DNA of 23,770 nt, taken from contig JAJRTK010000215.1 of assembly GCA_024278345.1 (NCBI GenBank), forward strand, positions 1 through 23,770, read 5' to 3'. Shown piece by piece: positions 1 to 21,191 of the stretch. Made by a program: the position numbers and the translations under genes. Within the stretch, counting starts at the first letter, position 1; the number at the start of each line of letters is the position of its first letter. A model generated the notes under the pieces. The model had not been told where the DNA came from. It saw only the letters and a list, made by a program, of their open reading frames with translations, and did no database searches. The DNA is from a bacterium (GTDB lineage: Bacteria; CSSED10-310; JAJRTK01).

Positions 1-231
1 GGCACCGAGACCACAACCGAGCCCGCCGGGGAAACTGCTGAGCCTTCCGGCGACACTTCGGAAGAATCCAGTCCGCCTGAACCTGGCACCGAGGCCACAA
101 CCGAGCCCGCCGGCGACACTGCTGAGCCTTCCGGCGACACTTCGGAAGAATCCAGTCCGCCTGAACCTGGCACCGAGACCACAACCGAGCCCGCCGGCGA
201 CACTTCGGAAGAATCCAGCCCTCCTGAAAAA
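1..231 (+). repeat. In-frame 84-bp tandem repeat, 2.75 copies
   Basis: Units start at 1, 85 and 169. The first two are 84 bases long and differ at only a few positions. The third lacks 21 bases (7 residues), ending near 231. Near-identity at nucleotide level, including third positions, suggests recent duplication. The array may continue left of the window. Confidence 0.85.
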
Positions 232-5349: not shown

Positions 5350-7776
5350 ATGATCCGGCGCATCGACCGGTATTTGATCCGAGAGTTCGTGCCTCCGTTC
5401 CTTCTGGGGCTGTTCGTCCTGACTTTTACGCTGGTGACGCAGCTCATCGTGAAGCTAACCGAATGGCTTATCAACAAGGGGGTTGGATTCGAGGCAGCGC
5501 TCCGGATTCTTCTTCTATCGCTACCCTATCTTCTGGTGCTGACCGTCCCCATGGCCGTGTTGACGGGCATTCTGATGGCTTTTGGACGTCTTAGCTCCGA
5601 CAGCGAGATCGTGGCGTTCAAGGCAAATGGGGTGAGCGTCTACCGCCTGGCGCTGCCGATCTTCATCATGGCGGCGCTGGCTTATGGGGCGACGACCTAT
5701 CTCTATGTGGGGATTTTGCCATCGACAAACATGTCCCTCAAGCAGCTCAAGTTCCAGATCTTGAAGTCCAGGGCATCCATCGGGATGAAGCCTCACGTCT
5801 TTAACACCTTCTTCGACAACCACGTGATCTACATCGAGGAGATCGACGACAAGACCGGCACGCTCCACGGTGTGTTCCTCTCGTCAGTGGGCAGCCAGAA
5901 GTCTAGGGTTTTCTTCGCGAATTCGGCTCGGAAGATCGTGGACGAAGAGAAACGGCTCTTGACGATGGAGCTGAGAGACGGGATTTGGCACCAGACAGAG
6001 ACCGGGGCAAGCGACGTCTATGGACTTTCGCCGTTTCAGACCGTCCGCTTCAACCTGGAGCTCGACAGCCCTGGCTTCGGGAACAACGTTCGGAAGGGCT
6101 ACCGAGAGATGACGCTTGCGGAGCTTCGGAAAAAGCGTGCGGACATCGTGACGGAGATTCGGGATGGCAAGGTGCTGCGCGCGAAGCTGGCGGCCGATCC
6201 AGAGCTGACGGAGGTGGCGAAGAATCTGAAATTCCGCCAGATCGACCCGCACCTGGCGTTCCGTACGTCACAGCTCTACCGCCTGGACGTGGAGGTCCAG
6301 AAGAAGTTTGCCATCCCCTTTGCGTGTATCATCTTCGCCCTCATCGGAGTGCCGTTGGGGATTCGCGGAACACGGACGGGGCGCTCGGCCGGATTCGCCA
6401 TCAGCGTGGGTCTTTTCCTGCTCTACTATCTCCTGCTTGTGGGAGGTGAAGGCCTGGGGAACGAGGGAAGTCTGCCAGCCTGGATCGCCATCTGGGGCGC
6501 GAATCTTGTCTTTGGGCTCGTAGGGCTCGTGCTCATTGTGGTGGTGGGCCGTGAAAGCCTGCCGGCACCGGTGCGCTGGGTGTTGGCCGGGCTCAGGCGA
6601 GGGTTTTCGGTCTTTTCCCGTCGCGGCGGGGGAGAGGATCAGGGCCTGGGCCGGGTTGCCGGGTTGCGGCTTCTGTCGTTTCCGAAGATCCTGGATCTCT
6701 ATATCGGCCGGGACTGGATCGTGATATTCTTCGGGCTGGTGCTGTCCATCACGCTGTTGACGGCGATTGTGCATCTATTCGAGAAGCTTGAGGAATTCAA
6801 CCGCTACCAGGCAACAATGGGAGAGGTGTTTCGGTATCTGGCGGCGCGCCTGCCAGATTTTGGTGTCATCGTGATCCACGTGGCGGCCCTGGTGGCCACG
6901 GTACTTGTGGTGTCTGGGCTAAACCGCCGGAGCGAGCTGACGGCGATGCGCGCCGGAACGGTTCCACTGCTTCGAGTGGCGATGCCGCTGCTCTTCCTGG
7001 GGCTCGTGGTCTCCGGCGGCGTCTGGCTCCTGACCGAGGAAATCGTCCCCAAGACGAACCGGAAGGCCAACGACATCTACGACTACGAGATCCGAGGGCG
7101 AAAACCGAAGAAGCTGGCCTTCAACCGGAATTGGTACCGGGCGTCGCACCGGTCGATCCTCTTCTATTCGCTCCAGCAAAAGCTCAAGGATGGAGGAGTC
7201 TCCCTGAATCGGTTCACGCTGTTTCGCATCGGGCCACGTGGCCTGCCGGTTCTCCGAATCGACGCGGACAAGGCAGTCTGGATGCCGGTTCGACAAAAGT
7301 GGGTGTACCACAACGCGGTGGTTCGCCGCTTTGACGAATCGGGCGGTTTCCTTCTTCAGGTCGAGCGAAAACGCCTTCCCTCGGATCTGGAAGAGAAGCC
7401 TTCGGATTTCGAGCGGGAGCTCAGCGACGCCGACGAGATGAACTACCGGGAGCTTGGCGAATTCATCGCGACACTTTCCTCCCAAGGCGCCGATGTCCAG
7501 CCCTACCGCGTTGATCTGTACGGCAAGCTGTCGTTCTGCCTCATCAGCTTCGTCATGGTGATGGTGGGGTTTCCCTTTGCCGCGATCTCCAACAGAAGCG
7601 GTCGCTTGGCCCTGGGAATCGTCGTGGCAATTGTCATCGGCATCACCTTTTTTGTCGCCTATCGCGTGGGAATCTCCATCGGTCGTGGAGGTGGTCTGAG
7701 CCCGCTGGCAGCGGCGTTTGGACCTCTTCTATGTTATTTTGGGCTGGGTGTGGCCTTCCTGTTCCGCATGGAGTGA
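5350..7776 (+). CDS. Fused LptF-LptG permease of the lipopolysaccharide export machine
   Basis: LptF and LptG are normally two inner-membrane proteins that, with ATPase LptB, extract LPS and push it through LptC/LptA to the outer membrane. This 808-residue ORF contains both halves in tandem. Half one: three helices (about 14-36, 52-76, 98-120), a periplasmic jellyroll region (about 140-240) and three helices (about 318-340, 346-366, 378-400). A cytoplasmic linker rich in Arg and Gly (400-440) follows. Half two opens with LDLYIGRDW (448-456), the same starting motif as IDRYLIREF in half one, and has three helices, a second periplasmic region and three closing helices (about 722-806). Each half is close to the size of one ordinary subunit. 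The ribosome site before ATG 5350 is weak. The gene implies a diderm with LPS-like lipid. No lptB or lptC is in the window. Confidence 0.9.
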   Translation: MIRRIDRYLIREFVPPFLLGLFVLTFTLVTQLIVKLTEWLINKGVGFEAALRILLLSLPYLLVLTVPMAVLTGILMAFGRLSSDSEIVAFKANGVSVYRLALPIFIMAALAYGATTYLYVGILPSTNMSLKQLKFQILKSRASIGMKPHVFNTFFDNHVIYIEEIDDKTGTLHGVFLSSVGSQKSRVFFANSARKIVDEEKRLLTMELRDGIWHQTETGASDVYGLSPFQTVRFNLELDSPGFGNNVRKGYREMTLAELRKKRADIVTEIRDGKVLRAKLAADPELTEVAKNLKFRQIDPHLAFRTSQLYRLDVEVQKKFAIPFACIIFALIGVPLGIRGTRTGRSAGFAISVGLFLLYYLLLVGGEGLGNEGSLPAWIAIWGANLVFGLVGLVLIVVVGRESLPAPVRWVLAGLRRGFSVFSRRGGGEDQGLGRVAGLRLLSFPKILDLYIGRDWIVIFFGLVLSITLLTAIVHLFEKLEEFNRYQATMGEVFRYLAARLPDFGVIVIHVAALVATVLVVSGLNRRSELTAMRAGTVPLLRVAMPLLFLGLVVSGGVWLLTEEIVPKTNRKANDIYDYEIRGRKPKKLAFNRNWYRASHRSILFYSLQQKLKDGGVSLNRFTLFRIGPRGLPVLRIDADKAVWMPVRQKWVYHNAVVRRFDESGGFLLQVERKRLPSDLEEKPSDFERELSDADEMNYRELGEFIATLSSQGADVQPYRVDLYGKLSFCLISFVMVMVGFPFAAISNRSGRLALGIVVAIVIGITFFVAYRVGISIGRGGGLSPLAAAFGPLLCYFGLGVAFLFRME

Positions 7777-7821: not shown

Positions 7822-10800
7822 ATGATCGTTTCGGAGACAAAGCCAAATCGGGATGAACCGGAAGCATCCTGTTCCGGGAGCTCTCGGGGAGCCGCCAGAC
7901 GTGGAAGCACCCAAAGCCGTTTTTTGCGGGCGCGTGCCTTCATTCTTGGAGCCGTTGCTCTGGGCTTGGCGGGTTTCGCCCAGATGCTCATGGTCAAGAA
8001 CGGTGTGAAGGGCGTGGATGGAGCAACGAATTGGTATGCCTTGGCGATTTTGGCGCTGATTCTAGGGTGGCACCGAACTGACAAGAATCGAAAGAGCGTG
8101 TTAGGGCTGGGGTTCTTGGGGCCAGCGGATTGCCCGCGCTCCACGGAGGAGAAGGCGCCCCAAGGAGGAAGACGCGGCCTGGCACTTCGTGCCGCTCCCT
8201 GGCTGTTGGCCCTCGCCGCCGTAGCACTCTCCGCCGCGAGCACCTGGAACCTTCGAGCCCACAACTATGATTCCGTCATGGGGGCAAGTGGTTGGGCCGT
8301 AGCCCTACTATTGCTGCTTGTGGCCGCGGTGTTGTGGGACATCCGTCACAAGTCCCGGGCTGTCATGCCCGAAAAGAGAATCGAGCGGAATCCGAAGCAT
8401 CAACGGTGGTTGGAGGGAGTCCTCTTCATCGCCATTGTGGGCTTGGCGGTAGCATTCCGGCTTTACCGGCTGGGGGATTGGACCACGGGGATGCACGGCG
8501 ACGAGGGGGAAGTTGGGATGGACGCGCTCCGCATTCTGAGCGGCCATCCGACTCCTCCCTTTCGGACCGGTTGGTTCGGGCAACCGAATTTCTATTACTG
8601 GAGCGTTGCTCTTGTGATGAAGTTCTTCGGGACGGGACTGACGGGGCTGCGGATGTTCTCCGCACTGTCGGGAATCGTCCTCGTCGTCTTTTTCTATTTC
8701 TTGGTTCGGGACTGTTTCGGGCGCAGGATGGCGATCATCTCAGGCTTCTTCCTGGCGATGTCGGACGTGGCGGTCCATTTCAGCCGACAGGAATTCAGCA
8801 ATATTACGACACCGCTCTTCATGGCGGCTGGGTTTCTTTTTTTTCTCCGTGGCCTGCGCACCGGTCGGTACTGGCATTTTGTAATGGCGGCATACTTCCA
8901 CATGCTGAATCTGCATTTCTATCTTGGAGGTCGCATTTCTCCGCTGCTCATGGGCGCATTTGGAGGATATCTTTTCCTGATTCGGCCGTTGGTCGTGGGG
9001 AGGAGAAGAGGCAGTTTCCCGCGCTTCACTGCATTGAGACACTATCGAGCCCACATCGCGATCTTCGCCATTGCCGCGGGATGCTTCGCCGCTCCGTGGA
9101 CCGCTTTCTACATGGATCACCTGACGCTCTGGAACTCGCGCCTGAAAGCCAAGCTCATCTTCCAGCATCCGGAGGTGATGGTCGCTCAGCATCACGTGAC
9201 CCACGACCCCCTATTCCTGGTCATTCGCGGACCCTTCGAGGATGGGGGGCTCCAGGCCCCAATCGTCTTTGAACCAACAGACCTCAGCGTGAAGCTGGCC
9301 GAAGACGGGTTTTGGCCGCGAGCCATCTGGGCGCAGTTGACGACCTCCCTTTCCATCTTGACCTACCGTCACGATGCCAGCTCAGTCTACACGTTCACCC
9401 GGGAGCCGGTGGCGAAACCCATGGAAGCGGCTCTCATCATCTTGGGAATTGCGTGGGCACTTTGGTGTTGGCGCAACGGCGCAATGGCCCTTCTGTCGAT
9501 CTGGTTTTGGGGTCCAGTCTTCATTGGAGGCACCCTGACCATCAACGCACCCTACATGGCGCGTTTGATCCCCATCCTACCGATGATGGCGGTTTTTGCC
9601 GCGCTGCCCCTGGACAAGTTAGCGACAGAGCTGGAGCGCCTGCTGGTGGGAAGGAATGGATCGAAACGACTGGCCTTCGCCGGTAAAGCCCTCACAAGTG
9701 TCGCGATTGCCGGAATTTTGGGATTCCTCTTGTGGCAGAATGTCCATGACTACTTCTACCGCTACCTGGAAAGCTATCCATTCCGCCCCACAACGGGACA
9801 GGCAGTCTTCGTACGCCAGATTCGGGAAAGAATCGAAGGCGAAGGCCGTCCTCCTCCAAAATTTTTCGCCATTGGCTCCCCTAAAATCTATTGGACGCAC
9901 GGCGTCAACCGCTTTCTCAATGCCGGGACCGACGGAGAAGATGTGAGAAACCTTGCCGATCTGCTTCCCATCCGGGAGGATGAGGATCGAGATGTCATCT
10001 TCTTCCTTTGGCCTCACAACAAGCAGTACTTACCCATCCTGCGGCTGTATTACCCGGATGGCGACGAAAAGGTCTTTCGCTACGGAGCACCAGGGCGCGA
10101 AACTCCTCTGCTGACCTCCTATCTGGTCCGCAAAGAAGAGATCGCGGCCCATCGCCAGTTGAAAGCAACCTACCGGATGGCTGATGGATCGGTCCTCCAA
10201 AGGATGGAATCCGGATTTGGGACCACCAAGCCACTGCCAATAGGAACCGTCTATCCCGTGGAAGCGAGCTGGTCCGGAACCATCTTGGCGCCAACCTACA
10301 GCAGCTACAGGTTCATGCTTCGAAGCGAGAAGCGAGGCGAATTGACCATCGATGGTAGACTCGTTGTGCGGACGGGAGAAGAAAGGCCGGCTGCATCGGG
10401 AAAGATCGTGCTTTCCCGGGGCTTGCACGCCGTGGAGCTTCGGGGCTTCCTCCGCCAACCCGCCGCGAAGGTCTCCATCCAGTGGGGGCGCGGTTTCAAC
10501 AAATGGCAACCTGTGGACAAAAAGGTTCTCTGGACTGGCCCGAATGCCACTTTCGCCGGCACCGTGTGGCACCTTCCCAGCAGAACAGAACCCGACCTCG
10601 CGGACCTACCCTCGGCGGCAAGCCGCCCCCTCTTATCTCGAAGAGGCGACGGCTTCCTGGGGATGCACGCCGCTCCCACCAGCATGAGTCGGAATCTTCC
10701 CTTGATCGCTTCCTGGCGAAGCAGATTTGACGTGCCCAAAGCTGGTGCATACCGGTTTTCCGCCTATTCCAACGGCGGCAGTATGATCCTCATCGATGGT

Positions 10801-11886
10801 GAAACCGTCGTGGACAACCGGCATCCTCCAGGACCTCCTCGTCGAGCCACCGGGCAGATCACCCTGGAACCTGGAGAGCACACCTTCGAGCTGCGCTACG
10901 TCTGGACCCGAGGCTTCGGGATCCTGGAAGCCTCTTGGGCGCCGCCCGGCGGAGCCCTCAGGCTGATCGCCCCCGGCGACATGCAGCCGGATCCCGCCAA
11001 GATTTCCGTGGAGCTGGACCGAAGAGGAGCCGAAGCCTCCACCGCGGGAGTCAGGCCCCTCGATGAGGCCCCGCCCATGGGCGACATTGTCCCGCACACG
11101 ATGGCCTTACAGGGCTCCCGGAGCATGGCCGCGGGTCCCGATTCAAGGCTCTATGTTGCCGATACGAAGCGCCGCCGTCTCGTTGTTCTGGACACCGACG
11201 GGAAGCTTGTCGCGGCTTTTGGAGAAGACAAAGACGGCAGCCAGAGGTTTGAGATCATCGAGGACATCTCCATCGGTCCCGCGGGCCGAATCTACATTCT
11301 GGATTCAGCGCGAAGGCAAGTCTTGGTCTGCGATGTGAGCGGCGTTTGCAGCACGCTCATTGACGGCGGCAGGGAGCTTTGCAATCCCGCCGGCTTCGAT
11401 GTGGGAAAGGAGGGCCACGTTTTCATCGCCGACACCTGTCAAGGGCGTGTCCGCCACTATGACGCGGCCGGGAAATGGGTCCGAGATTATCGTGCAAACG
11501 CCAATCCCCAAGACAGAATCGAGCAACCCATCGATGTGGCCGTCGATGACAAGAACGTCTATGTCGCGGATCTGAAAAAGCGAATCGTCAAGCTTGATCG
11601 AGAGACGGGACTCCTCGAAAAGGTCTGGCCCATCCCCGTTGGTGTTTTCAACGGCGGAAGCAGCTTAGAGATTGCCGGCTCCAAGCTCTATCTCAACAAC
11701 GCCAACCAAAACAGTCTCTTTGAGTTGGACATGGAGATCGATGACGTTCACTCCATTGGCCGGCGGGGTCAATTCACGCAACCGGTGGGGATCGCCGCCA
11801 CCGGGTCGAAGCTTTTCATCCTTGAGGGCAAAACCGGACGCATCCAGAGACTGGACAGAACGCCGGAGGAATTGCCCCATCGCTAG
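7822..11886 (+). CDS. Membrane GT-C glycosyltransferase (family 39 type) fused to two PA14-like modules and an NHL-like propeller
   Basis: The product has 1354 residues. Residues 38-175 carry about four hydrophobic segments. From about 197 the sequence looks like the PMT/ArnT superfamily, which transfers sugars from polyprenyl-phosphate donors. A first transmembrane helix leads into a loop with the acidic pair HGDEGE (D227/E228), the position of the catalytic Asp in this class, then many helices to about 660. A soluble part follows, probably periplasmic. About 805-905 and 942-1050 resemble PA14 modules (YRFMLRSEKRGELTIDGRLV and YRFSAYSNGGSMILIDGETV). About 1093-1354 is an NHL-like propeller with blade motifs such as DSRLYVADTKRRRLVVLD, GRIYILDSARRQ and GHVFIADTCQGRVRHYD. 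ATG 7822 has AAGAAGG upstream; the GTG at 7792 does not. It lies 45 bases after lptFG. PA14 modules often bind carbohydrate. The acceptor is unknown. Confidence 0.82.
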   Translation: MIVSETKPNRDEPEASCSGSSRGAARRGSTQSRFLRARAFILGAVALGLAGFAQMLMVKNGVKGVDGATNWYALAILALILGWHRTDKNRKSVLGLGFLGPADCPRSTEEKAPQGGRRGLALRAAPWLLALAAVALSAASTWNLRAHNYDSVMGASGWAVALLLLLVAAVLWDIRHKSRAVMPEKRIERNPKHQRWLEGVLFIAIVGLAVAFRLYRLGDWTTGMHGDEGEVGMDALRILSGHPTPPFRTGWFGQPNFYYWSVALVMKFFGTGLTGLRMFSALSGIVLVVFFYFLVRDCFGRRMAIISGFFLAMSDVAVHFSRQEFSNITTPLFMAAGFLFFLRGLRTGRYWHFVMAAYFHMLNLHFYLGGRISPLLMGAFGGYLFLIRPLVVGRRRGSFPRFTALRHYRAHIAIFAIAAGCFAAPWTAFYMDHLTLWNSRLKAKLIFQHPEVMVAQHHVTHDPLFLVIRGPFEDGGLQAPIVFEPTDLSVKLAEDGFWPRAIWAQLTTSLSILTYRHDASSVYTFTREPVAKPMEAALIILGIAWALWCWRNGAMALLSIWFWGPVFIGGTLTINAPYMARLIPILPMMAVFAALPLDKLATELERLLVGRNGSKRLAFAGKALTSVAIAGILGFLLWQNVHDYFYRYLESYPFRPTTGQAVFVRQIRERIEGEGRPPPKFFAIGSPKIYWTHGVNRFLNAGTDGEDVRNLADLLPIREDEDRDVIFFLWPHNKQYLPILRLYYPDGDEKVFRYGAPGRETPLLTSYLVRKEEIAAHRQLKATYRMADGSVLQRMESGFGTTKPLPIGTVYPVEASWSGTILAPTYSSYRFMLRSEKRGELTIDGRLVVRTGEERPAASGKIVLSRGLHAVELRGFLRQPAAKVSIQWGRGFNKWQPVDKKVLWTGPNATFAGTVWHLPSRTEPDLADLPSAASRPLLSRRGDGFLGMHAAPTSMSRNLPLIASWRSRFDVPKAGAYRFSAYSNGGSMILIDGETVVDNRHPPGPPRRATGQITLEPGEHTFELRYVWTRGFGILEASWAPPGGALRLIAPGDMQPDPAKISVELDRRGAEASTAGVRPLDEAPPMGDIVPHTMALQGSRSMAAGPDSRLYVADTKRRRLVVLDTDGKLVAAFGEDKDGSQRFEIIEDISIGPAGRIYILDSARRQVLVCDVSGVCSTLIDGGRELCNPAGFDVGKEGHVFIADTCQGRVRHYDAAGKWVRDYRANANPQDRIEQPIDVAVDDKNVYVADLKKRIVKLDRETGLLEKVWPIPVGVFNGGSSLEIAGSKLYLNNANQNSLFELDMEIDDVHSIGRRGQFTQPVGIAATGSKLFILEGKTGRIQRLDRTPEELPHR

Positions 11887-11969
11887 ATCGTTGAACCGAC
11901 ACCGACCCAGGACCGCGGTCTTCACCGACGGCCCTGCCGTTTGATCCATCTTGGCGATCCGGAGACTCC

Positions 11970-14585
11970 GTGGACAGGCCCAAACTCGACATCACCCAGG
12001 CTCGCCTCTGCGAAAGCTACTCGGAACATCTGTTCGTGGGGGAAGCCTACGTTTTTTTGGAACCCAGGGCGTACGAGAGTTCAGCTCTTTCGTGGGCCGG
12101 GCGAATGCTAGGGCGGCGGCGGGAGACGCCAATTCTGTCATCGCTCGTTGGGGGAACCGTCTGTTTTCCGGGAATCCGTATCCAGCCGCCACGGCTGCCG
12201 ATCCTGGATCTTTGCCAAATCCTGCCGGTGAAGGCGGTTTTCAGAGCCGGCCTGGAAAACGCGGAGCTGCTTCTGGTGGAGCCTAGTGGCTCCCGGAGAG
12301 AAAAAGCCCTGGAGATCCACTCCCCGGAACATGACACGAAGAATCTGACGGTGAAGTTGGACGAGGCGGGAATGGCCATGGTGGAGGTCGCCGGGCTGAA
12401 ACCGGGAGCTTACGAGGCCGCGGTCCTCGGGGAAGAGGGTGCCTTGGCATGGTGTGCCTTTTCGATCCTGGGGCCTCACGTCCCCGTTTTCGGGGTTCGG
12501 ATCCTGGAGGTTCCCGGAAACCACAAAGAAACGGAAACAGGAAACCTGCTCTTCTGGGTAGAACTCTGCGGCGAGCCGCTGGACGGGCCGTTGGAGGCGC
12601 TCCTGGAATTCGAGGATGGCCGGCGGGAAAAACTGACCGGCCAGGTGGTCGGTGGAACCCTGGAGCTCATCGCTCCCGGCAAGGGGAAGATCTCTCGCCT
12701 TGCCATTCGGGGCTGCTCACCGATCACTCCCACCGTAGTACTGGATCTCCTGAATTGGAATTCCCCGGGAGCAGACCGATTCCACCTGTCAAGCCTGGGG
12801 AACGAAATTTGGTGTTCCGCGGCGCCAGTCCTTCCCAACCGCCGGGTTCGTGGCCTCTATCTCAGCCGCGGGAAGGTGCGGCCGACGAACATCTGGCTGG
12901 AGCGCGTAGATACGGACTCGGCGCGCCTTCACGTCCTGAGCCCCTGTGAACCGGCGGAGATCCTGATCCTCGATCCGCGCAAGCAGCGGGGAGAGGAACG
13001 GCCGGACGTCGATCCCATCCAGGGGGCTATCGAGGCTGGCGGCCTTGCCCACGGGAAACCCGCCCAAACGGGCGGACGGTGGCGGCAGCACCGCTTCGAA
13101 AAACTGGAAAAGGGGGAGATCCTGAGCCTGGAGGTGCCGGCACCGCTCTCACTCTTGTTCATCGGGGCGGTGACTGATGGTGAGCCGTGGGAGGCCTGCG
13201 CCACGCTCCTCAAACCAAGCCCATGCCAACCGGAGATCCGTTTTCCAGCCGCAAGCGGGATAAAGTCCGGAATGGCCGTGGAAGTCCTGAGCAACAGCGA
13301 TGGGGAGTGCGAGGTCATTCTACAAGCCTGGCCGGGGAGCTTCGCGCCAGAGGATTCACTGGAACGTTCTCTCGCCAGAACCATGCTCCGGTTCCTGGAA
13401 AAGGTGCGAGGGCTGCCGCGCCTTTCCACCGCCGTTCCGAGCCTGGCCGAAGTGATGCGAAAAGGGGATCCTGGGGACGAAGGGTCCGCACCTTCCACCG
13501 CCGGTCCCCCGGGGATCAGCCCAAGCAAAGCAGCCGGGCTACTCCCGCCTTCGGGGAGGAGCGCCATCACTGGAGCCTATTTCCTGAAGGCGTCGAAGAC
13601 CTCCCATGGCGTGGCCCATTTCGAGATACCCCTTGATCCGGATATCGAACTCTACACCTTGGAGGCCTTGGTCCTCAAAAACGGGGACTGGGCAAGTTGC
13701 TCCGCTCACGCGGGATCTTCTGAAGACCCAGAGCTCAGGCTGCGGCTTCCACGGTTCCTGGGGTCGAATGAGGCCGTGAAGGCATGGGTCGTTTTGCGGT
13801 GGCGCGGCCCTCGGCCCCACTGCCGCCTCTTCCGGGACGGCGCCGAGATCTTCCTGGAACAGCCTGGCCACGCCGCGGAACCCGGTGAGAAAAAAGAAGA
13901 TGAAAAGCCGCGGACGCAACGAGCCGGCTACCCCTTCCTGGCCGTGGCCGGGCGGTACGAGGTCCTAGCTGAAGCCCCTGACGGGCGGGTCCTGGCAAGG
14001 GCGGAAGGCTCGACTTCGCTCCCTGAAACAGCCTTTCCATCCGCTATTGGCGCCAGGGGAACTCCCGCTGTGGGAGATTCTCCGCCCGGAAACGGGGAAA
14101 ACCTCCATCGGAGCGTCTCTCTCAGTGTTGGGGAAAAGGTGCCGGGGAGTTCCGAAGAGGGCCTGACTGCCTGGCTGGAACAGGGCGGCCGCCGCCGGAA
14201 AAGCGTGTCGGTGGGAGAAACGTTTCATCTTGTGGTTTCCGGGAAGTCGGGGAAAAAATTGCCGGCGGCCATGGAACTGCTCTTGCCCCAGGCAACCCGC
14301 TCCCCGAAACTGGGGAAGGGACAAGGACCGTTCGCCTTGGAGAGGGCGGATGGAGAACTGAGAGTGCCACTCCTGGCGCTGGAAGCGACTTTGGATCGGG
14401 AAGGCCAACCGGCGGTGGGACAGTTTCTGATTTGGGCCGGGTTTCCATTGGAGGTTCCCCTCCGGATTTTGGAGAATCGGCGCTGGGGCGCCAAATTGGC
14501 GCGGCGGCTGAAAAACTGTTCGCGGCGGCTCTTTGGAAAGGGGGAACTCTCTGACCTGGGTGAATCTCGGCGGACGGGTCGATGA
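11970..14585 (+). CDS. Large beta-rich protein with faint alpha-2-macroglobulin resemblance, coupled to the kinase gene
   Basis: The 871-residue protein is not confidently recognised. It reads as a chain of beta-sandwich-like segments. Two stretches recall macroglobulin domains: a segment around 105-250 (MVEVAGLKPGAYEAAVLGEE, then FGVRILEV) and one at about 555-620 (PLDPDIELYTLEALVLKNGD, then LRLPRFLGSNEAVKAWVVLR), like the 'P.FL..GD' strand pattern in bacterial alpha-2-macroglobulins. The CxEQ thioester motif is absent. No signal peptide or membrane helix is seen, so it is either cytoplasmic or exported in a non-obvious way, unlike true macroglobulins. The likely start is GTG 11970 with GGAG five bases upstream; the first internal ATG is 45 codons later. 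Its TGA overlaps the kinase ATG (ATGA, 14582-14585), implying coupled translation and probably a shared function. Macroglobulin relatedness is tentative; the ORF itself is solid. Confidence 0.7.
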   Translation: MDRPKLDITQARLCESYSEHLFVGEAYVFLEPRAYESSALSWAGRMLGRRRETPILSSLVGGTVCFPGIRIQPPRLPILDLCQILPVKAVFRAGLENAELLLVEPSGSRREKALEIHSPEHDTKNLTVKLDEAGMAMVEVAGLKPGAYEAAVLGEEGALAWCAFSILGPHVPVFGVRILEVPGNHKETETGNLLFWVELCGEPLDGPLEALLEFEDGRREKLTGQVVGGTLELIAPGKGKISRLAIRGCSPITPTVVLDLLNWNSPGADRFHLSSLGNEIWCSAAPVLPNRRVRGLYLSRGKVRPTNIWLERVDTDSARLHVLSPCEPAEILILDPRKQRGEERPDVDPIQGAIEAGGLAHGKPAQTGGRWRQHRFEKLEKGEILSLEVPAPLSLLFIGAVTDGEPWEACATLLKPSPCQPEIRFPAASGIKSGMAVEVLSNSDGECEVILQAWPGSFAPEDSLERSLARTMLRFLEKVRGLPRLSTAVPSLAEVMRKGDPGDEGSAPSTAGPPGISPSKAAGLLPPSGRSAITGAYFLKASKTSHGVAHFEIPLDPDIELYTLEALVLKNGDWASCSAHAGSSEDPELRLRLPRFLGSNEAVKAWVVLRWRGPRPHCRLFRDGAEIFLEQPGHAAEPGEKKEDEKPRTQRAGYPFLAVAGRYEVLAEAPDGRVLARAEGSTSLPETAFPSAIGARGTPAVGDSPPGNGENLHRSVSLSVGEKVPGSSEEGLTAWLEQGGRRRKSVSVGETFHLVVSGKSGKKLPAAMELLLPQATRSPKLGKGQGPFALERADGELRVPLLALEATLDREGQPAVGQFLIWAGFPLEVPLRILENRRWGAKLARRLKNCSRRLFGKGELSDLGESRRTGR

Positions 14586-16771
14586 AGGGCGGACAGCGCG
14601 CAGCGGCTGCGAGCGATGGGAGCGGAAATCAACCCAAAAAAGGATCCTTCACCTCGAAAATCAACGTCGGACAAAGCGGGAGATCGCCTAAAGTTGCATT
14701 CCCCGGCATCCCAGGCGAGAATCATCTCATGCTCCTTGAAACTGGACATCTGCTTGGAAAGCGATTTCGAATCCTGAAGCTGCTGGGCCGTGGCGGGATG
14801 GCGGAGGTTTATCTGGCCGAGGACAGGCGCCTTGGCGGCACGCTTTGCGTCAAATTGCTCCTGCCGCATCTTCGAAGCGATCCGGTGGTCTGCATTCGTT
14901 TCGAGCGGGAGGTGGCGACGGCACGGGGACTGGCGCATTCCAACATCGTTCGGATCTTCGAGCTTTGCGAAAGCGACGGGTGGCTCTATTTCACCATGGA
15001 GTATCTGGACGGCCCCGACCTCAAGCGGAGGCTCCGAAGCCGGGGGCCCCTGCCACCCCGGGAGTTGGCCGAGCTGGGTTCGGAAGTCGCCCTGGCGCTG
15101 GATGCCGCCCATGAACAGGGGATCGTTCATCGAGACGTAAAACCGCAGAACATCCTGCTCCCCAAGGATAGGCCTCCCGTGCTCGTGGACTTCGGCCTTG
15201 CGCACATGGCAAATCTCGTGGGCCTGTCCATGGGGAGCATGATGCTGGGAACGCCGGAGTACAGTGCTCCGGAGCTCCTTGACGGCGCGGTGCCCGATCC
15301 TCGCGCGGATCTTTATTCCCTGGGCGTCGTCCTCTATGAGATGGCCACGGGAAAGCTTCCCTTCCGCTCGCGCAGCCTCTATGGCGTCCTCCGGCAACAG
15401 GTGGAGACGACCGCACCCAGTATCCTGGCCCAGAATCCAGATCTTCCGCGGTGGCTGGAGAAGATCGTCGCCTGCGCCCTCTCCAAGGACCCGGAAGACC
15501 GGTTTCAGACCGCCGGGGAGATGGGGGAAATGCTCCGCCGTCAGGACGCGGCCCTCCAGGCCCTCACGCGGACTCTCGCGCCACATCCGGCGCGGCCCTG
15601 CCCACGTTGCCGGACCCCGCTTCTTCCCTCCATCCCCCTCTGCCTCGAATGTGGTTACGAGCCCCTGGTCGTCGGGAATCAGGCCACGGGAACCCACGTC
15701 CTTGTCCTCAAGGGCCCTGGCTGGGGCTGGGTGAAGCAACGGGGGATCTACGGCGGCCAGGATCCCCTGACCTACGAACAGAAATGGCGTTTCGCGGCTC
15801 TGCTCCAAGAGCTGTGCGGAAACGAACAAATCCCGGTCCACGAGATGGACTTACGCCTTCGGAACCTGCCCACGGTCGTCTTCGATAGGCTGAGCCAAGA
15901 AGATGGAGAGAAGCTCATGGACCGATTCGGGCAGATGGAGATCCCCACGGAGGTCAGGCAGCGTTTTGCCTTGAAAAACGCCGACCTTGTCACCGACAGC
16001 ACTCCCGTGGTCACGCTGGTCGCCATGATCCTCTTCTCCGCGGCACTCTTTGTGACGCTCCCCTTCTTCAACCTGCAGCTCATTGGTTCCGTGGCCTTCG
16101 GAACGATCCTGGCCACCTTCGGGCTCAAATTGGCCTTGCTCAAGCCCCTTGCGCGGCTTCCGGGAAAGAGCCACGGCTCGGCTGAAGCTTCCCCCCTCGT
16201 CTCTCTGTGCCGGGAGATCCTCCCCACACTCCGCACGCCAAGGCTCAAGAAACTCGTTCGCAAGATCCTCCTGCGTTACACCATTCTCCACAACCGCCTC
16301 CACGCCGCCGCGGAAGGTCCCACCGCCGCCCTGGCGGACGAGGCCGAGACATTCGAAACGCTGGGCCGCAAGGCTCTGGAGCTGGCGGTCAAAATCCAAA
16401 CGCTGGAGGATTCCATGGAACCTCTCCAGGAGGCAGAGCTGGTGGAGGCCGTCCAACGCCTGGACGTGGCCATCGACGAAGAAACCAATCTCGTGAGAAC
16501 CGACCAGCTCATCCTGGAACGAAAGGCAACCATGGAGGGATTGAACCACCTCGCCGAAGCCGAAGAGACGCTCTCGGCACTCTACGGCCATCTCGTTCGG
16601 GCCAGCGCCACCTTCGCTTCCGTAGTGGCCAGGCTCGGCGCCCTGGAAGGCAAGCTGGAGCTGGCCGACCCGACGCTGCCCAGAGCCTTCGCCGCCATGG
16701 AACTGGTGCTGGACCGCGCCGCCAAGGCCACGGAAAAACTCTTGCCCGAACCTACCCTTGATTCGTCGTGA
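14582..16771 (+). CDS. Membrane-associated Ser/Thr protein kinase with zinc ribbon and helical C-terminal region
   Basis: The 729-residue protein has a complete Hanks-type kinase domain at about 62-330: Gly-loop GRGGMAEV (69-76), catalytic lysine K91, HRDVKPQN (183-190), DFG (203-205) and GTPEYSAPE (223-231). All catalytic residues are present. A four-cysteine zinc ribbon follows (C340, C343, C354, C357). A segment of about 110 residues (from THVLVLKGPGWGW) has no recognised domain. Two hydrophobic segments (about 474-493 and 497-519) form a hairpin, leaving a long helical, Leu/Glu/Ala-rich, coiled-coil-like C-terminus on the same side as the kinase. No PASTA or other extracellular sensor is seen. 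The start at 14582 is coupled to the upstream stop. An in-frame ATG at 14729 lies closer to the domain and is possible, as residues 1-50 look disordered. The kinase may regulate the macroglobulin-like partner or envelope glycosylation; that is inference. Confidence 0.93.
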   Translation: MKGGQRAAAASDGSGNQPKKGSFTSKINVGQSGRSPKVAFPGIPGENHLMLLETGHLLGKRFRILKLLGRGGMAEVYLAEDRRLGGTLCVKLLLPHLRSDPVVCIRFEREVATARGLAHSNIVRIFELCESDGWLYFTMEYLDGPDLKRRLRSRGPLPPRELAELGSEVALALDAAHEQGIVHRDVKPQNILLPKDRPPVLVDFGLAHMANLVGLSMGSMMLGTPEYSAPELLDGAVPDPRADLYSLGVVLYEMATGKLPFRSRSLYGVLRQQVETTAPSILAQNPDLPRWLEKIVACALSKDPEDRFQTAGEMGEMLRRQDAALQALTRTLAPHPARPCPRCRTPLLPSIPLCLECGYEPLVVGNQATGTHVLVLKGPGWGWVKQRGIYGGQDPLTYEQKWRFAALLQELCGNEQIPVHEMDLRLRNLPTVVFDRLSQEDGEKLMDRFGQMEIPTEVRQRFALKNADLVTDSTPVVTLVAMILFSAALFVTLPFFNLQLIGSVAFGTILATFGLKLALLKPLARLPGKSHGSAEASPLVSLCREILPTLRTPRLKKLVRKILLRYTILHNRLHAAAEGPTAALADEAETFETLGRKALELAVKIQTLEDSMEPLQEAELVEAVQRLDVAIDEETNLVRTDQLILERKATMEGLNHLAEAEETLSALYGHLVRASATFASVVARLGALEGKLELADPTLPRAFAAMELVLDRAAKATEKLLPEPTLDSS

Positions 16772-16901: not shown

Positions 16902-16998
16902 CCACCTCCACGGCGGCAACCATGCGTGGTCGCCCTGAAGAAAAGCCAACTGGAGGCATCCACCCAGAGCCTCCGAAGAAATGAGAAAGGACTGCAAA

Positions 16999-17397
16999 AT
17001 GCGGCATCAACCTTGGAAGATACTGGGACTTTTTGTCCTCTTCGCCCTCCTTAGCACCCATTGTGCCACGGCCGGAAGCTGGGCGTTACTGGGCACGAAA
17101 ACCGTGAAGATCGTCGGAGAACGCGACGTGATTGTCGTCACGGGAGCCGAGGGAACCTTCAGCAAAATCAAGCTTCTGGTGAAACGCCGGGGCATCCACA
17201 TTGGAAAGATCGTCGTCCACTACGGCAACGGCACTTCCGCGAAAGTCGCCGTGCGCAAGTTCATTCCCGCCGGTGGCGAAACTCGGGCCATCGACCTCCC
17301 CGGAAACAAGAGAACCATCAAGAAGGTCGTCTTCCATTACAAGACCAAACGGGGAGCGAAAAGACGGGCCATCGTGGAACTCTTCGGGAAACACTGA
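16999..17397 (+). CDS. Small secreted protein of unknown function (DUF2541-like pattern)
   Basis: The predicted 132-residue product begins with a typical signal peptide: a basic start (MRHQPWK), a hydrophobic core (ILGLFVLFALL) and a likely cleavage after CATA. The Cys is not in a clear lipobox. The mature part of about 107 residues is basic and beta-strand-like: a GSWALLGTKTVKI opening, two strand pairs of the form 'IGKIVVHYGNG' and 'IKKVVFHYKTK', and GGETRAIDLPG between them. That layout resembles small periplasmic proteins of the DUF2541/YaaI kind, from memory only. ATG 16999 is preferred because AAAGGA sits about eight bases upstream; ATG 16981 in the same frame lacks a ribosome site and would add six residues. 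A 6-bp inverted repeat (GGAGGC at 16952, GCCTCC at 16969) lies just upstream. It follows a terminator, so it is probably transcribed separately. Confidence 0.75.
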   Translation: MRHQPWKILGLFVLFALLSTHCATAGSWALLGTKTVKIVGERDVIVVTGAEGTFSKIKLLVKRRGIHIGKIVVHYGNGTSAKVAVRKFIPAGGETRAIDLPGNKRTIKKVVFHYKTKRGAKRRAIVELFGKH

Positions 17398-18633: not shown

Positions 18634-21191
18634 GGCGATTCCTCCTCCGCCCCGGAGCCGGCCTCTTCCGCAACGACATCCTCCCCCCCGGAGCCGGCCT
18701 CTTCCGCAACGACATCCTCCGCCCCGGAGCCGGCCTCTCCTGCAACGACATCCTCCGCCCCGGAGCCGGCCTCTCCTGCAACGACATCCTCACAGCCCGC
18801 CAGACCGGCGTCGGCCACCGGCCCAGCGGCCCCACCGCCTCCTCCGTCAACGGCCTCGACCACGGGACCGCCAGACACGCCGCCTCCTCCGTCAACGGCC
18901 TCGACGCTGCCTATGCAGGATCGGGTCCCTTCCTCTCGCTCCCCCCACAAGACCCAGGATCGCTCCAGACCCACGCGGTGGCAGAGCGCTCCCAGCAGAT
19001 CCTCCGCAGCCCTCCCGATGGGCGTGCCGGGACCGAAGACCGCGGCGACCCCCATTTCCCGCAGCGGCCCCACATCACCGGGAGGAACCACACCGCCCAC
19101 CACCACAAGAATGTCCTGCCGCCCAAATCGCCGAAGCTCCCCCATGAGCTGGGGAACCAGCGTCAGATGCCCGGCGGCCAACGAGCTCACCCCCACCACG
19201 TGGACGTCGTTTTCCACCGCCTGCCGCGCCGTTTCCTCCGGCGTCTGGAAGAGCGGGCCAACATCGACGTCGAATCCCAGATCGGCGAAGCCCGTGGCCA
19301 CCACCTTCTGCCCTCGGTCGTGCCCATCCTGCCCCATCTTCGCCACCAAGATCCGAGGCCGGCGGCCCTCCATCTCCGCAAACCGCCCTGTCATCTCCCG
19401 AATTCGCTTTACAATCCCCTGCCCCACTTCTCCTCCATAAACGCCAGAAACCGTCCGGATCGCCGCTCTGTGCCGCCTGAAAACCTTCTCCAGGGCACTG
19501 CTGATCTCCCCAACCGTCGCCCAAAGCCGCGCCGCCTCCACGGAGGCCTCCAAAAGATTGCCCTCACCCTCTGCCGCGCATTGCTCCAGCTCCCGGAGCG
19601 ACCGGCACACCGCATCTTCATCCCGTTCCCGCCGCAGCCGCTCCAATCTGGCGACCTGCGCCTCCCTCACGGCGCGATTGTCCACCTTCAGGATCTCCAT
19701 GTCACTGGCCTCATCCTCTTCGGCCACACCCCGGTTGACACCCAAGATCACCTGCCGCCCGGAATCGATCCGCGCCTGTGTCCGCGCCGCCGCCTCCTCG
19801 ATCCGCATCTTGGGAAGCCCGCTCTCGATGGCCCGCGCCATGCCGCCCAGATCCTCCACCTCCCGAATATGCTCCCACGCCCGAAGATAGAGGTCATGGG
19901 TCAACTGCTCCACGGCATGGCTCCCGCCCCAAGGATCGACGATGCGACAGCTCCCGGTCTCGTGCTGCAAGAAAAGTTGCGTATTCCGCGCCAACCGGGC
20001 ACTGAAATCGGTGGGCAACGCCAAGGCCTCGTCCAACGCATTGGTGTGGAGCGACTGCGTATGACCATGAACGGCGGCCATCGCCTCCAGACAGGTGCGG
20101 ACCACGTTGTTGAACGGCTCTTGCGCCGTCAAGCTCCAGCCCGAGGTCTGACAGTGAGCCCGAAGAGAAAAGCTCTTGGGGTTCCGAGGCTCGAATGGGC
20201 GCATGAGGCAAGCCCAAAGATATCGCGCCGCACGCAGCTTCGCCACCTCCAGGAAGTAATTCATGCCCACGCCCCAAAAGAAGGAAAGCCGGGGCGCGAA
20301 AGCATCCACATCCAGCCCGGCAGCCACCCCGGCCCGAACGTATTCAATGCCGTCGGCAAGAGTATAAGCCAGTTCCAGGTCCACCGTCGCCCCCGCCTCC
20401 TGCATGTGGTATCCGGAAATGCTGATGCTGTTGAAACGAGGCATCTTCCGTGACGTAAAGGCGAAAATATCCGACACGATCCGCATGGACGGCCCCGGAG
20501 GATAAATATAAGTATTCCGAACCATGAACTCCTTGAGGATGTCGTTCTGGATTGTCCCACTCAGCTTCCCAACCGGAACCCCCTGCTCCTCCGCCGCCAC
20601 GATATAGAGCGCCATGATGGGCAATACGGCGCCATTCATGGTCATGGAAACGCTCATCTTGTCCAGAGGGATCCCCTCGAAGAGAATCCGCATGTCCAGG
20701 ATCGAATCGATGGCAACCCCGGCCATCCCCACATCTCCAGCCACCCGCGGATGATCCGAATCATAGCCCCGGTGCGTCGGCAGGTCGAAGGCAATGGACA
20801 ACCCCCTCTGCCCCGACGCCAGGTTCCGCCGGTAAAAAGCGTTGCTCTCTTCCGCCGTGGAATAGCCCGCATATTGCCGAATCGTCCAGGGCCGAAGGCA
20901 ATACATCGTCCGGTAGGGTCCGCGAACGAACGGAGGATAGCCCGGCATCGTCCCAAGATGCGGAATCCCCTCCAAATCCTCCGAAACGTAGCGAGGCCGC
21001 AGCCCAATGCCTTCTGGAAGCTCCTTCACACCCTGGTGATGGTCTTCTTGGGTTGCGTTCCGCGCCCATCGCTCGCCTCCGCTGCGCGCTGGCCGCCCCT
21101 CACCACCCACAAGCCTACGCTCCAAGCCGCCAAAAACAGAAACCCGCCTGGAATCGAAATCGAACTCCGAAAAATTGGGAATCCTACTCAT
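18630..21191 (-). CDS. mutB: Methylmalonyl-CoA mutase large (catalytic, B12-binding) subunit with an extended C-terminal repeat tail
   Basis: This catalytic subunit interconverts (R)-methylmalonyl-CoA and succinyl-CoA with adenosylcobalamin. Of 853 residues, the first ~600 form the TIM barrel and substrate site. Y97 (in [10 protein letters not shown]) and THRGYDSD (139-146) match methylmalonyl-CoA mutase, not isobutyryl-CoA mutase. The cobalamin domain has DGHDRG (622-627, lower axial ligand H624), GVSSLAAGH and GGVVP. The enzyme part ends near 740, the usual family length. About 110 extra residues follow, rich in Gly, Ala, Glu and Val and made of short repeats. The true start is ATG 21191, with GGGAGGAG (complement of 21198-21205) six bases upstream. 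The frame remains open further 5', but that part overlaps mutA and is unlike the family. The start overlaps the mutA stop by eight bases, and its stop overlaps meaB. Confidence 0.96.
18641..18648 (-). promoter_or_regulatory. Shine-Dalgarno of meaB inside the mutB coding tail
   Basis: On the minus strand this reads GGAGGAGG, seven bases before the GTG at 18633. The same bases encode the Glu-rich end of MutB (AEEESP, then stop). This site decides the otherwise ambiguous GTG start. Confidence 0.75.
18649..18792 (-). repeat. Four 36-bp tandem repeats encoding the MutB tail
   Basis: Four units start at 18649, 18685, 18721 and 18757 on the plus strand (core GGAGCCGGCCTCT). They differ at only a few bases. 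On the minus strand each encodes the 12-residue unit EDVVAxEAGSGA (once GSGG). In frame, near-identical and outside the conserved enzyme, this points to recent slippage or duplication. Confidence 0.9.
18835..18905 (-). repeat. Duplicated 26-bp segment in the MutB tail
   Basis: The same 26-base sequence occurs at 18835-18860 and 18880-18905, 45 bases apart and in frame. On the minus strand it encodes VEAVDGGGG each time. Together with the 36-bp array it makes almost the whole tail repetitive. Confidence 0.8.

What the first reader, a model, noticed from the sequence alone, without database searches (positions are those of the whole stretch)
7822..16771. Possible undescribed envelope system: GT-C transferase / macroglobulin-like protein / membrane Ser-Thr kinase
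Three very large genes in a row encode a polyprenyl-sugar-type membrane glycosyltransferase with PA14-like and propeller modules, an 871-residue beta-rich protein, and a kinase anchored by a membrane hairpin. Gaps are 83 bases and then a 4-base overlap, all in one direction, directly after the LPS export permease. I know of no named system with this composition. The functional link is inference from order, direction and overlap.
Basis: partly seen in the sequence, partly recalled or inferred. Interest (0 to 1): 0.62.

Follow-up and report, generated by a model that had tools for sequence, protein, structure and literature searches.

The report
Cytosolic macroglobulin-like protein beside a kinase
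A bacterial gene next to a membrane protein kinase encodes a protein shaped like the immune-system protein alpha-2-macroglobulin but apparently kept inside the cell, and relatives in other bacteria carry signalling domains exactly where the macroglobulin bait loop should be, which suggests an unstudied intracellular use of this fold.

Summary
The three genes exist, but the "4-base overlap" is almost certainly a false start: the kinase most likely begins at 14729, leaving a gap of about 143 bases. The GT-C gene is an ordinary PMT/GT39-type transferase with PA14 and NHL modules. It never accompanies the other two elsewhere, and none of the three follows lptFG in other genomes of the phylum.

The real finding is the 871-residue protein. 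It has no Pfam, NCBIfam or PDB sequence match of its own. Homologues in about a dozen Myxococcota and other genomes, a family profile (human A2M, E 2.8e-7) and an AlphaFold model (best PDB matches nearly all A2M, complement, TEP1 or CD109) show an alpha-2-macroglobulin fold. The core family has no signal peptide. Two relatives carry FHA or MshEN signalling domains inside the bait-region loop and a third has MshEN at its N-terminus, so the family is probably cytosolic. Eight of 13 core members keep a C-x-E-Q thioester motif; the window protein has lost the thioester domain.

A same-strand Ser/Thr kinase is the immediate neighbour in 3 of 13 loci (0.4 expected). Best reading: a thioester-less cytosolic A2M-fold scaffold acting with the adjacent membrane kinase. 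The envelope system is not supported.

The parts
11970..14585 (+). 871-residue cytosolic alpha-2-macroglobulin-fold protein without a thioester domain (the core of the finding)
   Evidence: Homologues, PF00207 in homologues above cut-off, family profile against human A2M E 2.8e-7, AF2 model against A2M/C3/C5/TEP1/CD109; no signal peptide
13368..13568 (+). Bait-region-like loop of the 871-aa protein (residues 467-533, P/G/S/T/A-rich), the position where relatives L105 and L092 carry FHA or MshEN/T2SSE modules
   Evidence: Alignment, Pfam, low pLDDT around residues 499-536
14478..14531 (+). Basic amphipathic C-terminal helix (residues 837-854, net charge +8), possible membrane-surface contact
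   Evidence: Highest hydrophobic moment of all 854 windows in the protein; similar tails in several relatives
14729..16771 (+). Membrane-anchored Hanks-type Ser/Thr kinase, likely true start at 14729 (ORF listed from 14582)
   Evidence: PF00069 E 2.9e-47; start inferred from paralogue alignment and codon-position GC
15599..15652 (+). Zinc ribbon of the kinase (C340-x2-C343 ... C354-x2-C357)
   Evidence: Conserved in the paralogue
15986..16099 (+). Hydrophobic hairpin of the kinase (residues about 469-506)
   Evidence: Hydropathy; also present in the paralogue
7822..11886 (+). GT-C (PMT/GT39-type) membrane glycosyltransferase with C-terminal PA14 and NHL modules; neighbour, probably not part of a common system
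   Evidence: Pfam PMT_2, PA14, NHL; never next to homologues of the 871-aa protein
5350..7776 (+). lptF-lptG fusion, end of a conserved housekeeping block; not part of a common system
   Evidence: TIGR04407/TIGR04408 above cut-off; lptFG found in 6 of the 7 other genomes of the phylum

Best explanation
The 871-residue protein is a divergent member of a family of alpha-2-macroglobulin-fold proteins that stay in the cytosol; the window member has lost the thioester domain. SHOWN by computation: the macroglobulin fold; the absence of a signal peptide in the core family; a conserved C-x-E-Q motif in 8 of 13 core members; FHA or MshEN signalling modules at the bait-region position of two members; no thioester domain in the window protein. 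INFERRED: (1) cytosolic location; (2) the bait-loop position acts as an input site, read by binding or phosphorylation rather than by a protease, and changes the shape of the macroglobulin ring; (3) in the window, where covalent capture is no longer possible, the protein works as a non-covalent scaffold or cage held at the inner membrane surface by its basic C-terminal helix; (4) the adjacent membrane-anchored Ser/Thr kinase is its partner, either phosphorylating the S/T-rich loop or being bound and controlled by the scaffold. The GT-C gene is taken to be an unrelated neighbour.
For: Homologues found by profile and motif search. PF00207 (A2M) above the gathering cut-off in L076, L048 and L103. 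Profile against human A2M with colinear MG, A2M and TED segments, E 2.8e-7. AF2 model with 8 sequences: best Foldseek hits nearly all A2M, TEP1, C5 and CD109 (E down to 1.7e-16); VIA Z 15.7. No N-terminal signal, and a conserved block starting about 20 residues in. FHA E 3.6e-18 and MshEN E 4e-22 inside the bait segment, MshEN E 1.9e-17 at the N-terminus of a third. Same-strand immediate kinase neighbour at the window, at L091 (both sides) and at L104: 3 of 13 against 0.40 expected, P about 0.007. Kinase motifs intact in sequence (HRDVKPQN, DFG). Basic amphipathic tail.
Against: The kinase link is statistically modest: these genomes hold roughly 90 to 350 kinases each (G370 only 9), kinases cluster, the test was made after seeing the data, and 10 of 13 loci lack an immediate kinase neighbour. 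The window protein lies on a long branch (2.48 changes per column), so it may be specialised or decaying. AF2 confidence is moderate (mean pLDDT 58.7). The window loop itself carries no FHA or MshEN. Two more distant relatives (L093, L106) do have signal peptides, so the broader group is not exclusively cytosolic. No expression or localisation data exist.
Confidence: 0.45

Rival explanations
1. The macroglobulin-like protein is a stand-alone cytosolic factor, for example an intracellular protease trap or an anti-invasion factor, and the kinase is an unrelated neighbour in a genome that has about 120 of them.
For: 120 kinase matches in 6.06 Mb; 10 of 13 loci lack an immediate kinase neighbour; the closest kinase paralogue in the genome has no such partner.
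Against: Same-strand adjacency in 3 independent genomes against 0.40 expected; L091 has kinases on both sides; an FHA domain, a phosphothreonine reader, sits inside one relative.
Confidence: 0.32
2. One reading: GT-C, 871-aa protein and kinase form one envelope system encoded as an operon after lptFG.
For: Order and direction; 83-base gap; no sigma-70-type promoter match in the region, although such a scan is weak evidence.
Against: No GT-C near any other family locus; lptFG is not followed by these genes in related genomes; the kinase overlap is an artefact; no signal peptide on the 871-aa protein.
Confidence: 0.07
3. It is a bacterial type II (thioester-less, MagD-like) A2M that works in the periplasm as a non-covalent protease trap.
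For: Macroglobulin fold without a thioester motif, as described for MagD (PMC5764988).
Against: No signal peptide or lipobox; no mag-type neighbours; nearest relatives retain CxEQ and carry cytosolic domains; the genome separately encodes a canonical 2096-residue A2M with bMG3, BRD, A2M and bMG10 domains.
Confidence: 0.06
4. The window copy is a decaying remnant of a thioester-bearing cytosolic A2M.
For: Thioester domain lost; long branch; no close relative in the phylum.
Against: Open 871-codon frame with coding-like codon-position GC nearly throughout; a separate branch, L048, lacks the domain too, so domain-less forms exist elsewhere.
Confidence: 0.1

Closest known systems
Bacterial type I alpha-2-macroglobulin (ECAM/YfhM, Salmonella A2M)
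   Same: MG-domain array with A2M (MG7) domain and bait-like loop; family relatives keep C-x-E-Q
   Different: No signal peptide or lipobox; about half the size; the window member lacks the thioester domain; bait position carries FHA or MshEN in relatives; no PBP1c gene in the window neighbourhood
Bacterial type II A2M (MagD of the mag operon, PMC5764988)
   Same: No thioester, macroglobulin fold
   Different: MagD has a signal peptide, is periplasmic and sits in a six-gene operon; none of this is seen here
Eukaryotic A2M, complement C3/C5, insect TEP1, CD109
   Same: Fold of residues about 18-687 (Z mostly 11-15)
   Different: Secreted or surface proteins with signal peptides; very low sequence identity (7-15%)
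Hanks-type bacterial Ser/Thr kinases (PknB/Stk1 group)
   Same: Kinase domain and catalytic motifs
   Different: No PASTA sensor; instead zinc ribbon, hydrophobic hairpin and a C-terminal region found so far only in two paralogues of this genome
GT39/PMT and Agl23-like GT-C transferases (TIGR03663)
   Same: PMT_2 domain
   Different: C-terminal PA14 and NHL modules; similar combinations occur in other genomes of the phylum

Membership tests
Alpha-2-macroglobulin superfamily (fold level) | Array of MG beta-sandwich domains ending in the A2M (MG7) domain | tested here: met
   Foldseek E 1.7e-16 to A2M, VIA Z up to 15.7 over residues 18-690; family profile against human A2M E 2.8e-7
Alpha-2-macroglobulin superfamily (fold level) | Pfam A2M domain PF00207 | tested here: inconclusive
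   Above cut-off in homologues L076, L048, L103 but no hit for the window protein itself
Bacterial type I A2M | Thioester domain with C-x-E-Q | tested here: not met
   Window protein has no TED and no motif; 8 of 12 other core members have C-x-E-Q
Bacterial type I A2M | Signal peptide or lipobox, periplasmic | tested here: not met
   No N-terminal hydrophobic segment; conserved N-terminus
Bacterial type I A2M | Neighbouring PBP1c (pbpC) gene | tested here: not met
   Window neighbours are GT-C and kinase
Bacterial type II A2M (MagD) | No thioester motif | tested here: met
Bacterial type II A2M (MagD) | Signal peptide and six-gene mag operon | tested here: not met
   No signal; the window neighbours are a GT-C and a kinase, not mag-type genes
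Cytosolic A2M-like family proposed here | Similarity to the family profile and a [PC][WF]E[GA]-type motif before the bait segment | tested here: met
   Profile hit over positions 2-885, E 5.6e-245, by construction; single-sequence phmmer with the window protein E 1.3e-43 to Archangium L085/L096; motif PWEAC
Cytosolic A2M-like family proposed here | Cytosolic location | not testable with these tools
   Inferred from absent signal peptides and FHA/MshEN modules in relatives
Hanks-type Ser/Thr kinase | Kinase domain with catalytic HRD and DFG motifs | tested here: met
   PF00069 E 2.9e-47; HRDVKPQN and DFG in sequence
   No GT-C near 12 other core family loci; lptFG not followed by them in the phylum

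The most novel reading that the evidence does not exclude
Bacteria have an intracellular complement-like system: cytosolic macroglobulin proteins whose bait loop has been replaced by signal readers (FHA for phosphothreonine, MshEN possibly for c-di-GMP), so that signalling and not proteolysis triggers the conformational change and, in thioester-bearing members, covalent attachment to targets. The window shows a derived, thioester-less form coupled to a membrane Ser/Thr kinase.
Probability: 0.2. Interest if true: 0.88.

Novelty: new variant of a known kind. Interest (0 to 1): 0.6.

Why it matters
Alpha-2-macroglobulins and complement proteins are known as secreted or periplasmic proteins, the A2Ms being traps triggered by proteolysis of a bait region. 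A sparse bacterial family without signal peptides, with an often intact thioester motif and, in some members, FHA or MshEN modules at the bait position, would be a different use of the fold: a signal-gated intracellular switch. Thioesters working in the cytosol would raise the question of what they attach to. One family member is in a named isolate, Archangium lansinium MIWBW (L085), so the question may be open to genetics.

Tried and rejected
Single-sequence AF2 of the 871-aa protein gave pLDDT 33 and was not used. A genome scan with the kinase C-terminus found no relative. PADLOC matches of the kinase to PD-T4-6 and MAD6 are generic kinase-domain matches; the macroglobulin proteins have none. 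I first counted L092 as having an immediate kinase neighbour; a MerR-type gene lies between, so it is not counted. In the structure search the residues after about 690 were barely tested; no claim is made about their fold. No paper on a cytosolic bacterial A2M or an A2M-FHA fusion was found in the open-access library; subscription papers are not covered.

Full report
WHAT IS THERE. The window is contig C139 of a 6.06 Mb, 550-contig genome from a small phylum (only seven other genomes held, all of other genera). The region begins with a housekeeping block: response-regulator protein, nadC, birA, coaX, a 278-aa ORF and an lptF-lptG fusion (nadC, birA and coaX named from sequence). Then follow, on the same strand, a GT-C protein (7822-11886; PMT_2, two PA14 stretches, NHL), an 871-residue protein (11970-14585) and a Ser/Thr kinase (ORF 14582-16771; PF00069 E 2.9e-47).

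THE OVERLAP IS NOT REAL. The genome encodes a full-length, 49% identical paralogue of the kinase (G000:C90). It begins at the residue that matches M50 of the window ORF. The 147 bases before M50 have flat codon-position GC (0.57/0.55/0.57), unlike the kinase body (0.70/0.43/0.76). The kinase most likely starts at 14729, about 143 bases after the 871-aa gene. The paralogue has no 871-like neighbour.

THE THREE-GENE SYSTEM IS NOT SUPPORTED. In the six other genomes of the phylum where an lptFG locus was read, lptFG often follows coaX, but GT-C, 871-aa and kinase genes never come next. No GT-C or LptFG homologue was found within the fetched flanks of any other family locus. The kinase C-terminal region has no relative in the phylum outside this genome, and a genome-collection scan found none. 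GT-C proteins with PA14 and NHL parts are common in the phylum.

WHAT THE 871-AA PROTEIN IS. Alone it matches nothing in Pfam, NCBIfam or the PDB. A protein search over 386 genomes found three distant homologues; profile searches and a designed DNA pattern for the family motif GAFxxxxPWEGW added more. In the phylum of Archangium only 5 of 195 genomes have a hit at E up to 1e-20, so distribution is patchy. Homologues match PF00207 above cut-off. A profile of nine sequences matches human A2M (E 2.8e-7) with colinear MG, A2M and thioester-domain segments, and E. coli YfhM at 0.003. AF2 with eight sequences gave mean pLDDT 58.7; its best PDB matches are nearly all A2M, TEP1, complement and CD109 (Foldseek E 1.7e-16; VIA Z 15.7, residues 18-690).

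WHY IT IS PROBABLY CYTOSOLIC. None of the 13 core members examined has an N-terminal signal-like hydrophobic segment, and in most the conserved region starts about 20 residues from the N-terminus. L105 has an FHA domain (E 3.6e-18) and L092 an MshEN domain plus part of a T2SSE domain (E 4e-22, 1.7e-16), both inside the segment directly before the A2M domain, where the bait region lies in A2M. L104 has MshEN at its N-terminus (E 1.9e-17) and L048 an N-terminal zinc-ribbon-like stretch. L105 and L092 are sisters in the tree (99/99), carry different modules at the same place, and both have a MerR-type gene just upstream. Two more distant relatives (L093, L106) do have signal peptides, so the broader group is mixed.

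THIOESTER. C-x-E-Q is kept in L080, L082, L083, L085, L086, L103, L105 (CCEQ) and L104 (CSEQ). It is altered in L081, L075 and L092, and the whole domain is missing in the window protein and in L048, which lie in different parts of the tree. The window protein may keep a remnant of the final MG domain and has a basic amphipathic tail; that part of the model has low confidence.

THE KINASE LINK. Of 13 core loci, three have a Ser/Thr kinase as immediate same-strand neighbour: the window, L091 (kinases on both sides, with a second one downstream) and L104. From kinase counts per genome 0.40 is expected, P about 0.007. The figure for four loci in that call included L092, where a MerR gene intervenes, and is not used. 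This is suggestive only: kinases cluster, and the test was made after seeing the data. The FHA insertion is independent support for a phospho-signalling connection of the family.

HOW IT MOST LIKELY WORKS. I propose a cytosolic macroglobulin scaffold at the inner membrane surface with its bait-like loop (residues 467-533) as input site for the neighbouring membrane kinase. The fold and domain arrangement are shown; location, input and partner are inferred. In thioester-bearing relatives the same switch could expose a covalent trap. None of this has been tested experimentally.

NOVELTY. Secreted and periplasmic A2Ms of types I and II are known (PMC5764988). I found no description of signal-peptide-less bacterial A2Ms with FHA or MshEN modules in the open-access library, which is not the whole literature. 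I rate it a new variant of a known kind.

Noticed in passing
L105:4874-8926 and L092:7053-11165: Signal-peptide-less A2M-like proteins with FHA (L105) or MshEN plus T2SSE (L092) inserted at the bait-region position, each with a MerR-type gene directly upstream.
   Followed up: partly
L091:4974-17130: In a MAG labelled Candidatus Riflebacteria, the A2M-like gene is flanked by three Ser/Thr kinase genes on the same strand (one upstream, two downstream).
   Followed up: partly
window 5350-7776; L129-L134: LptF and LptG are fused into one protein in most genomes of this small phylum, at the end of a conserved RR-(valS)-nadC-birA-coaX-X-lptFG block.
   Followed up: partly
window 18643-18791: Four copies of a 36-base repeat encode an acidic tail ([12 protein letters not shown] type) at the C-terminus of the methylmalonyl-CoA mutase-like protein on the minus strand.
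   Followed up: no
window 1-204: 84-base tandem repeat, 2.4 copies, 96% matches, at the contig end.
   Followed up: no
L107:4635-10925 (G000:C446): The same genome encodes a canonical 2096-residue bacterial A2M (bMG3, BRD, A2M, bMG10), separate from the 871-aa protein.
   Followed up: yes
G000, whole genome: About 120 Ser/Thr kinase matches in 6 Mb; G391 has 347 first-look candidates in 8.4 Mb.
   Followed up: no
window 16981-17397: Small protein with a DUF2541 match (E 6e-8) after the kinase.
   Followed up: no
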